From Bdellovibrio sp. NC01 (GTDB lineage Bacteria > Bdellovibrionota > Bdellovibrionia > Bdellovibrionales > Bdellovibrionaceae), in assembly GCF_006874625.1 (NCBI RefSeq), contig NZ_CP030034.1, positions 992,001-1,056,000 of the forward strand: a DNA stretch of 64,000 nucleotides, given 5' to 3'. Position numbers and translations under genes: made by a program. A model generated the notes under the pieces. The model was not told the DNA's origin. It saw only the letters and a list, made by a program, of their open reading frames with translations, and ran no database searches. This document shows, in pieces, positions 16,997-19,119 of the stretch. Each line of letters starts with the position of its first letter. Positions within the stretch are counted from its first letter, which is position 1.

Positions 16997-18073
16997 ATGG
17001 CTGATTGGCGTGAACGAAGTGAAATGAATGGCGATGTGGTTTTTTTCCGTTACGTTTCTGAGGGAATGGAAAAGAGTCATGATGAGGTCTTCTTGTGGGA
17101 TCTCGATAAAACCTATCTTGATACGGCCATTGATTCGTTGTCGGGTTTGATGACGACGATTCTTGAAAAAGCTTTGAATAAGAAAAACGTTCCTGGCACG
17201 AACACTTTGTTGCAATCGCTTTCCGAGTATCGCAAGCAACAAAAAGGTTACATGTATTTTCCGATTTATTTCATCACGGCATCACCGCCACAGATGGAAG
17301 AAAGAATTTCGGAAAAATTCTCACTGGATAATATCAGACCGTTTGGTTGCTTTTATAAAGACAATTTAGCGAATCTTCGTCCGGGTCGCTTTTGGCGTTT
17401 AACGAAACAGGTCGGCTATAAGTTGCAAGCGTTGTTACAACTGCGCACGCGCTTAGGCGAAACGGTTCGTCAAATCTGTTGGGGCGATGACAGTGAAACA
17501 GATGCGATCATTTATAATCTCTATTCAGATATCTGTTCACGTCGTTTAGGTGCGCATGAAATTCGCACGACACTTGAAAGATTAAATGTTTCAGGCGAGC
17601 AAGTGGATACGATCTTGGAACTGCAAGCCAGCATTCCAGAAAATGATCCGGTTGAAAAAATCTATATCAATTTAGCGACGGATACGGACCCTGATTACTA
17701 TTTGAAATTTGGTCGCAGAACGCTTGCAACCTACAACACGTTCCAAGTCGCTCTTGATTTGTTCCAAGACCGTCGCATTGGCCTGGAAGGTTTGTATTCA
17801 GTCCTTCAAGACATGATCTACAACTACGGCTACACACCAGAAGAATTGATGAAGAGCTTTGACGAATTCATTCGTCGCGGAGTCCTTGGTCAAGCCGCCT
17901 ATGAAGAAGCCCGCGCATTCTTCGTCGAAAAAGGTTTGCTGTATCCATCGTACTCACCAACGGTCGCACCACTGAAAGAAAAATTAGTGGTTGAAGGAAG
18001 AGTCTACGAAATGGAAGGCGCCCATGAGCCTTGGATTCCAGAGCGCATCGACTACTTACACGATTATCGTTAA
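16997..18073 (+). CDS. HAD-like phosphatase-domain protein (APP1/DUF2183-type)
   Basis: 358 residues without a signal peptide. The HAD motif I is FLWDLDKTYLDT (DxDKT, about 31-42), motif II is YFITASPPQ and the acidic motif is CWGDDSETDAIIY. This layout matches the catalytic part of APP1-like phosphatidate phosphatases and related DUF2183 proteins. The C-terminal half is helical and not recognised. The start could also be the internal Met in SEMNGDVVFF. It is convergent with the AgmX-like gene, with a large inverted repeat between them. Confidence 0.72.
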   Translation: MADWRERSEMNGDVVFFRYVSEGMEKSHDEVFLWDLDKTYLDTAIDSLSGLMTTILEKALNKKNVPGTNTLLQSLSEYRKQQKGYMYFPIYFITASPPQMEERISEKFSLDNIRPFGCFYKDNLANLRPGRFWRLTKQVGYKLQALLQLRTRLGETVRQICWGDDSETDAIIYNLYSDICSRRLGAHEIRTTLERLNVSGEQVDTILELQASIPENDPVEKIYINLATDTDPDYYLKFGRRTLATYNTFQVALDLFQDRRIGLEGLYSVLQDMIYNYGYTPEELMKSFDEFIRRGVLGQAAYEEARAFFVEKGLLYPSYSPTVAPLKEKLVVEGRVYEMEGAHEPWIPERIDYLHDYR

Positions 18074-18080
18074 AGCGGGG

Positions 18081-18225
18081 ATTTGCTACTAAGGCAGAAC
18101 TTTACCTGTTCTTCGGCGGCACGCCATCCGGGCTCAATCGTCGCCGAAGCTTCGCTTCGGTTCGCGCATCCATGCGCCGACGAAGGCCGCCTACGCACAG
18201 GCAAATTTCTGCCTTAGCAGCAAAT
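18081..18225. repeat. 145-base nested inverted-repeat element
   Basis: The outer arms 18081-18108 and 18198-18225 are complementary at 25 of 28 positions. Inside, GGCGGC (18115-18120) pairs with GCCGCC (18186-18191) and TCGTCG (18138-18143) with CGACGA (18178-18183). The centre holds two hairpins: CCGAAGC/GCTTCGG with a TTC loop (18144-18160) and GCGCAT/ATGCGC (18164-18177). It fills most of the gap between two convergent genes. It could be a mobile palindromic element or a structured RNA. Confidence 0.85.
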
Positions 18226-18309
18226 TGTGCATATTCGAAAAACAAATAGCAGTTGTTGTTACTGAACTGCGTGTATAAAATACTCCGACGAAAAAGGGTA
18301 TGGATGTAG

Positions 18310-19119
18310 TTATTCGAATTTAAGAGGGAAGACTGTTGAGATGGCGTCGCCCGTGAATGATTTGAAATCGACTCGGCGAATGGCATCGATCAGGCATTTT
18401 TTGAAATTCGCATCGTTGATTGTCGATGAGGCGATTTCTGCGTTGTAGACTTTGCCGGATCTTTCGATAGTAAAACTAATTGAAGCTTGGCCAACCACAC
18501 CTGGAGTTCTTTGCAATAACTGTGTGTAGCACTTAAAGAACGAAGCACGTTGCAAGCGCAATGTTTCTTGAATCGCTTCGGAAGTAAGACCGCCTTCGAC
18601 TCGGCCGCTGATCATTTCTGGTGAAGCGTCAGCCGTTGGCGCTAGATCTGGAAGACTTTGTTGCGGAGCTTGTTTTTTATAATTCGTTTCGTAGTCCGTG
18701 GCTGTCCAACGAACGCCATCGCGAGAAACATAGACTGTGCCTTCACGGCCGAAGTTTTCTACTTGGACGTCACCACGCTTGATGATGATCACTGTGCGAT
18801 CGCTTTCTTCGTCCAACGTCACTAAAGAATTTTCTTCGACACGAATGCGGTAAGAAGAATCGAAGTCCATTGTGGCGTCGCCATCAGGACCTGTCTCAAC
18901 GGAATCCAATGCAAACAACGACGCTCTTTTCGTCAAAGTTTCTTTTTGGGTCATGTTTTTGCGAAGAACGAAGACTTTACCAAGATTGAGTTCGATACGC
19001 GCAAGAGGCGCTTCACCTGGTTTTTGTTTTTCAGTGCGGGATGCGATGAAGATAGAAAGAGCTACGCTCAAGATTCCGAAACCGATAAGAGATGCAATCA
19101 ACCAATTGTTCTTCGCCAT
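18310..19119 (-). CDS. FecR-like plus AgmX/PglI C-terminal domain protein, membrane-anchored
   Basis: 269 residues. One N-terminal membrane anchor (about 5-26, WLIASLIGFGILSVALSIFI) precedes a FecR-like beta domain (about 40-140, including RIRVEENSLVTLDEESDRT). The C-terminal domain (about 175-269) is the AgmX/PglI type, with RASFFKCYTQLLQRTPGVVG and GKVYNAEIASSTINDANFKKCLIDAIRRVDF. AgmX domains occur in gliding-related proteins of myxobacteria and relatives and resemble TonB C-termini. It lies 35 bases downstream of secG on the same strand. The role in the envelope is unproven. Confidence 0.85.
   Translation of the reverse strand: MAKNNWLIASLIGFGILSVALSIFIASRTEKQKPGEAPLARIELNLGKVFVLRKNMTQKETLTKRASLFALDSVETGPDGDATMDFDSSYRIRVEENSLVTLDEESDRTVIIIKRGDVQVENFGREGTVYVSRDGVRWTATDYETNYKKQAPQQSLPDLAPTADASPEMISGRVEGGLTSEAIQETLRLQRASFFKCYTQLLQRTPGVVGQASISFTIERSGKVYNAEIASSTINDANFKKCLIDAIRRVDFKSFTGDAISTVFPLKFE

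What the first reader, a model, noticed from the sequence alone, without database searches (positions are those of the whole stretch)
18081..18225. 145-base nested inverted-repeat element between convergent genes
Seen directly: 28-base outer arms complementary at 25 positions, two more paired segments nested inside them (6 bp each) and two hairpins in the centre. Convergent genes usually share a simple terminator; this is far larger and branched. It could be a palindromic mobile element, a structured non-coding RNA or a very large bidirectional terminator. No copy was noticed elsewhere in this window.
Basis: partly seen in the sequence, partly recalled or inferred. Interest (0 to 1): 0.7.

Follow-up and report, generated by a model that had tools for sequence, protein, structure and literature searches.

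The report
Dispersed DNA palindrome family in Bdellovibrio
The folded sequence is one of about 25 scattered copies of an unnamed, mobile, palindromic DNA repeat of predatory Bdellovibrio bacteria; its middle is conserved while its two long arms differ in almost every copy yet match each other, and they appear to be kept matching as DNA rather than as RNA.

Summary
Confirmed, and part of something larger. The 145 bases (core 18111-18195) are one of 25 copies in this genome; about 295 copies occur in 22 of 24 Bdellovibrio genomes. No Rfam family matches. The branched core is conserved: 99.0% of 2274 pair cells pair, and 20 of 24 pairs change on both sides. The ~45-base arms are near-random between copies but about 90% complementary within each copy. 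Pairing does not look RNA-selected: 101 G-U versus 124 A-C in the arms, against 26 versus 2 in the same genome's tRNA stems. Copies sit directly behind a gene's stop codon or its terminator. One G001 copy is a recent insertion into a terminator T-tract, with no element in four relatives; its core equals other copies, its arms are new. In 28 of 103 copies the palindrome extends into the flanks, sometimes as an inverted copy of the neighbouring gene's 3' end. Best reading: a non-autonomous REP/MITE-like mobile DNA palindrome whose arms are copied from each other by template switching. The mobilising enzyme and any host function are unknown. A structured RNA or giant terminator is less likely.

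The parts
18067..18238 (+). whole element at its widest pairing, both arms and core
   Evidence: fold of 18061-18245
18075..18110 (+). 5' arm: outer motif GCGGGGATTTGC (18075-18086), then copy-specific stem
   Evidence: outer motif shared with many copies, inner stem not
18111..18195 (+). conserved core (covariance model R1, 98.7 bits)
18115..18120 (+). core stem P1, 5' side, pairs with 18186-18191
18123..18133 (+). core small hairpin P2 (GCC-ATCCG-GGC)
18138..18143 (+). core stem P3, 5' side, pairs with 18178-18183; strongly covarying
   Evidence: U-A, C-G, G-C and A-U all occur, no G-U
18144..18160 (+). core hairpin P4; strongly covarying
18164..18177 (+). core hairpin P5
18178..18191 (+). 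3' sides of P3 and P1
18196..18230 (+). 3' arm, reverse complement of the 5' arm, ending in outer motif AAATTGTGC
16997..18073 (+). upstream gene (APP1_cat-like, 358 aa); its stop codon directly precedes the element
18310..19119 (-). converging gene (AgmX/PglI C-terminal domain, 269 aa)

Best explanation
It is a copy of a non-autonomous, dispersed palindromic DNA element (REP/ERIC/MITE-like) of Bdellovibrionaceae. SHOWN: it is multi-copy, with a conserved core and copy-specific complementary arms; it lies behind gene 3' ends and terminators; copies are gained and lost; the pairing shows no RNA signature. INFERRED: a conserved core is inserted behind the 3' end of a gene, at least once into the T-tract of an intrinsic terminator. 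The arms are then made and kept complementary at the DNA level, by replication or repair switching template between them (fold-back copying). The same process can overwrite the outer flank with an inverted copy of the neighbouring gene end. The enzyme that moves the core is unknown, and a host role is not needed to explain the data.
For: 25 copies in the own genome. 22 of 24 genus members hold 2-29 copies; two other genera hold 4 and 1. Core: 99.0% of cells paired, 20/24 pairs changed on both sides, covariation 0.445 against 0.03-0.08 for slid structures. DNA-level pairing: arms WC 4427, G-U 101, A-C 124, transversion mismatches 274; core G-U 3, A-C 8; tRNA control G-U 26, A-C 2. Position: the upstream gene points at the element in 62 of 81 copies, and stop-to-core distance is mostly bimodal (37-66 or 107-151 nt); in about 10 of 25 own copies a terminator stands between. 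Lineage-specific gain: 235 bp in G001 between CGCCTATTTT and TATTTTTTTGCGG, uninterrupted in G018, and no element at the site in G020, G006 and G017. This copy's core is 100% identical to two other G001 copies while its arms match theirs at 0.50-0.67 (random about 0.55); beyond cores nothing else in G001, G018 or G008 matches its arms except the related copy L238 at 80% (G001) and a partial 83% match in G008. Ortholog pair L228/L242 shows nine two-sided and no one-sided arm changes, L234/L247 five and none. Inverted homology of outer flanks exceeds the 99% null in 28 of 103 copies, including coding ends (L221, L006, L207). At the window's own site the element is present in 5 species and absent in species with the same gene neighbours.
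Against: No mobilising enzyme was found. Y1 transposases are absent from two genomes with 11 copies each. Only one insertion is polarised by outgroups, and its 6-bp flanking direct repeat is T-rich and could be chance. Settled orthologs usually keep identical arms, so continuous template switching is not observed directly. The source of the new arms in G001 is unexplained. The conserved unpaired bases of the core suggest a binding partner that is not identified.
Confidence: 0.62

Rival explanations
1. A structured RNA element of 3' untranslated regions: it is transcribed with the upstream gene, folds, and protects the mRNA 3' end or is cut by RNase III.
For: Position right behind stop codons. 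One copy in the genome identified as B. bacteriovorus HD100 (1339154-1339241, +) lies in sense inside the published attack-phase RNA APsRNA6 (1338787-1339441, +; PMC3627812); the coordinate frame was checked with merRNA's c-di-GMP riboswitch. Strong covariation.
Against: G-U pairs are no commoner than A-C mismatches in arms or core, unlike tRNA stems. Many copies lie behind the terminator of the upstream gene, outside its main transcript. No sigma-70-like promoter near the window copy.
Confidence: 0.16
2. An oversized bidirectional transcription terminator between convergent genes.
For: Convergent setting in 41 of 81 scored copies; at the same site HD100, Tiberius and G023 carry a plain terminator-like hairpin instead.
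Against: No T-tract follows the stem on either strand and no terminator-like site was found at the window copy; 36 of 81 copies are between tandem genes; about ten own copies already follow a terminator; APsRNA6 is reported to run about 150 nt past the element.
Confidence: 0.07
3. A REP/BIME-type repeat mobilised by a Y1 (RAYT) transposase.
For: Two Y1_Tnp genes in the own genome; hairpin element, 3'-end location and moderate copy number as in REPs (PMC3733652).
Against: G012 (complete) and G007 have 11 copies each and no Y1_Tnp hit, while G003 and G004 have Y1_Tnp and no copies. The own RAYT on L086 has no copy beside it: the nearest is about 1.8 kb away behind other genes.
Confidence: 0.1
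4. Relics or passengers of an IS1-like insertion sequence.
For: In G012 three copies sit just inside one end of a ~0.85-1.2 kb unit with matching ends (AACTGATCC...) and an IS1-like transposase ORF.
Against: Copies elsewhere lack those ends; in G012 itself L110 shares with the unit only about 164 bp covering the element. The IS looks like a carrier that picked up one element.
Confidence: 0.05

Closest known systems
REP / BIME repeats (GTAG and CGTC superfamilies, PMC3733652)
   Same: Intergenic, palindromic, multi-copy, mostly downstream of genes and often between convergent genes.
   Different: REPs are 20-40 bp single hairpins with an unpaired GTAG or CGTC tag; here 150-180 bp, a branched core inside long copy-specific arms, and the CGTC in the core is base-paired.
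ERIC and other 100-200 bp palindromic intergenic repeats, MITEs (own knowledge)
   Same: Size, palindromy, extragenic position, no coding capacity.
   Different: To my knowledge those families keep similar sequence over their whole length; here only core and outer motif are shared, and no common terminal repeat or cognate transposase was found.
Integron attC sites (own knowledge)
   Same: Imperfect DNA palindromes with conserved structure and poorly conserved stem sequence.
   Different: No GTTRRRY/RYYYAAC ends seen, no arrays; here the centre is conserved, whereas in attC the ends are.
Template-switch evolution of hairpins (quasipalindrome correction; PMC8794818)
   Same: Multi-base two-sided changes and perfect stems without G-U intermediates; a mechanism, not an element family.
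   Different: There described for RNA genes; here for a dispersed DNA repeat, with the palindrome reaching into neighbouring coding ends.

Membership tests
Any Rfam RNA family | covariance model match | tested here: not met
   no gathering hit in the window; only a chance-level cobalamin hit outside the element
GTAG REP mobilised by RAYT | GTAG tag beside a short hairpin, and RAYT gene flanked by the repeat | tested here: not met
   no conserved GTAG flanking a simple hairpin in the copy alignments; nearest copy 1.8 kb from the RAYT on L086; copies in genomes without Y1_Tnp. The second RAYT (L087) was only searched for the core
CGTC REP | unpaired CGTC tag and 8-9 bp stem, 20-40 bp in all | tested here: not met
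   CGTC of the core is paired with GACG and covaries; size about 150-180 bp
MITE | flanking target-site duplication | tested here: inconclusive
   one polarised insertion with TATTTT on both sides; T-rich, single case
MITE | terminal repeats shared with an autonomous transposon | tested here: not met
   only the G012 units carry a transposase ORF and their ends are absent from the other copies read
Intrinsic terminator | GC-rich stem followed at once by a T-tract | tested here: not met
Structured RNA under selection | covariation with G-U pairs far above A-C mismatches | tested here: not met
   against tRNA control
Integron attC site | GTTRRRY/RYYYAAC core sites at the ends | tested here: not met
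   by inspection only of the outer motifs GCGGGGATTT...AAATTTTGC

The most novel reading that the evidence does not exclude
The element renews its arms when it moves or is repaired: a conserved core is inserted or converted, and a fresh, copy-specific arm and its exact reverse complement are made in one event. This would be a repeat family with built-in production of new self-complementary sequence.
Probability: 0.2. Interest if true: 0.85.

Novelty: new variant of a known kind. Interest (0 to 1): 0.6.

Why it matters
It adds an apparently undescribed, genus-wide repeat family to predatory bacteria. It is also a cautionary case: by ordinary criteria (strong covariation, very low folding energy) it would be called a structured RNA, yet the G-U/A-C balance says the pairing is a DNA property. 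With about 300 copies, many orthologous between close species, it gives material to test how template switching creates, renews and extends palindromes, and whether an unknown enzyme moves hairpin DNA into terminators.

Tried and rejected
RAYT as mobiliser: no co-occurrence. The partial core match near the RAYT on L086 proved to be an ordinary copy behind an aldehyde-dehydrogenase-like gene. IS1-like transposase in G012 as the general autonomous partner: its ends are missing from other copies. Phages and viral contigs: no match. Named-genome scan with an exact 28-base pattern found only one Bdellovibrio MAG (near relatives may be left out there). The lepB site as an empty-site comparison failed because the neighbouring genes differ. 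L231/L296 and L146/L301 look like deletions that left element ends behind, so not every empty site is ancestral. A donor with L141's arms: none found. Literature: no description of this repeat found in the held library. A length-only ORF heuristic suggested little orientation bias; a coding-score gene caller replaced it.

Full report
OBSERVATION. The window copy is real and not a chance fold: -79.5 and -87.5 kcal/mol on the two strands, z below -6, no shuffle as good. It sits between a stop codon at 18071-18073 and a converging gene ending at 18310. The core has three hairpins rather than two. Nothing in Rfam matches.

COPIES. A DNA search of the own genome gave 16 hits: the copy itself, its own reverse strand, and 14 other places. 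A covariance model of 14 cores (R1) finds 25 copies. In relatives it finds copies in 22 of 24 genus members (2 to 29 each, about 295 in all), in two other genera of the family (4 and 1), and none in the other 74 genomes searched outside the genus (strict filters, so weak copies may be missed). For G005 this is supported by finding the merRNA c-di-GMP riboswitch at the published coordinates.

ANATOMY. Outside to inside: an outer motif (GCGGGGATTT ... AAATTTTGC in the own genome), a copy-specific stem, then the core: P1, small hairpin P2, and stem P3 opening into hairpins P4 and P5. Over 97 distinct copies 99.0% of core pair cells are paired and 20 of 24 pairs have two-sided changes; sliding the partner by one base drops pairing to 39-46%. 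The alignment was fitted to the structure, which favours it, but the sequences show the same by eye. Between copies of the own genome, inner arms are 62% alike (55% for shuffled arms), while an arm matches its own partner at 88%; cores are 78% alike.

DNA OR RNA. If pairing were selected in RNA, G-U pairs should be tolerated and A-C mismatches not. Observed in the arms: 101 G-U and 124 A-C; in the core 3 and 8. The control, acceptor and T stems of 30 tRNAs of the same genome, gives 26 and 2. The constraint therefore acts on Watson-Crick complementarity of DNA (or on both strands alike). An element transcribed and selected on both strands would give the same balance and is not excluded.

POSITION. 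Using a coding-score gene caller on 81 copies with enough flank (some of them orthologous to each other): 41 convergent, 21 and 15 tandem, 4 divergent. The upstream gene points at the element in 62. The distance from its stop to the core is mostly bimodal: 37-66 nt, so the element starts directly behind the stop, or 107-151 nt, the room taken by a terminator. Terminators with T-tracts directly before the element are visible in about ten own copies.

MOBILITY. At the window's site the element is present in G000, G006, G017, G001 and G018 and absent from others with the same converging gene, where a short spacer or a plain terminator-like hairpin is found; a tree of the gene needs at least two changes. 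A cleaner case is the gene for a Cu/Zn superoxide-dismutase-like protein in G001 (L141; name from sequence features, own reading): 235 bp inserted in the T-tract of a terminator that is uninterrupted in G018. Orthologous places in G020, G006 and G017 hold no element. The insert holds the element plus a terminator pointing the other way, and is flanked by TATTTT on both sides. Its core is identical to two other G001 copies, one of which is shared with G018, yet its arms resemble no other copy beyond chance except the related copy L238 (80% over arms and core) and a partial match in G008 (83% over one arm and most of the core). Losses also occur: two 'empty' relatives keep the end of an element.

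ARMS. Fourteen ortholog pairs of G001 and G018: most arms are unchanged, but at four loci (L168/169, L233/244, L228/242, L234/247) both arms are rewritten, while the gene-side far flank is 92-99% alike and the near flanks range from 53 to 97%. L228/L242 shows nine two-sided and no one-sided change; L234/L247 five and none (the arm alignments of L168/169 and L233/244 are unreliable in detail). In L143/L085 the 5' arm is identical and the 3' arm matches it perfectly in one genome only. In 28 of 103 copies the outer flanks (45-140 nt from the core) are inverted copies of each other above the 99% level of mismatched pairs. In several the left partner is the coding end of the upstream gene: L221, L006, L207, and L132 and L140 in HD100. 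These footprints fit DNA template switching, which is known to create and repair hairpins (PMC8794818).

RNA EVIDENCE. In HD100 one copy (1339154-1339241, +) lies in sense within APsRNA6 (1338787-1339441, +), an attack-phase RNA with a FliA promoter. That transcript also contains a 92-codon reading frame ending just before the element, and is reported to continue about 150 nt past it. So at least one copy is transcribed and does not stop transcription.

VERDICT. A new, mobile, REP/MITE-like DNA palindrome family with unusual arm evolution. Shown: family, conservation, DNA-type pairing, location, one polarised gain. Inferred: template switching as the arm-keeping process, and an unidentified mobilising enzyme.

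Noticed in passing
L132:1288-1942 (G005:C1:1338787-1339441): The published 'small RNA' APsRNA6 of HD100 contains a 92-codon frame (L132:1314-1592) with likely membrane segments, so it may be an mRNA with the element in its 3' part.
   Followed up: partly
L250 (G012:C1:2003500-2011500), unit ~821-2049 on the reverse strand; also L248, L249: An IS1-like insertion sequence (290-aa transposase, ends AACTGATCC...) carries the palindrome inside one end, in three intergenic copies that each start within about 25 bp of a host gene's stop.
   Followed up: partly
G000:C1:588974 and 589372; L144; L145; L149; L232; L066; L083; L097: Close pairs of copies, usually in inverted orientation and about 0.2-0.7 kb apart, recur in several genomes.
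   Followed up: no
G000 chromosome: 20 of 25 copies lie in the first 1.65 Mb of the 3.98 Mb chromosome (binomial p about 1e-4, cut-off chosen after looking).
   Followed up: no
L015:1441-1557 (G000:C1:2549043-2549159): In this copy hairpin P5 carries an extra ~30-base hairpin in its loop.
   Followed up: no
G000:C1:1181412-1181753 and 614779-615048: Two Y1_Tnp (RAYT-like) genes; their own flanking repeats were not characterised beyond a search for the core.
   Followed up: partly
window 18310-19119: The converging gene has an AgmX/PglI C-terminal domain, as in gliding-motility and TonB-like proteins.
   Followed up: no
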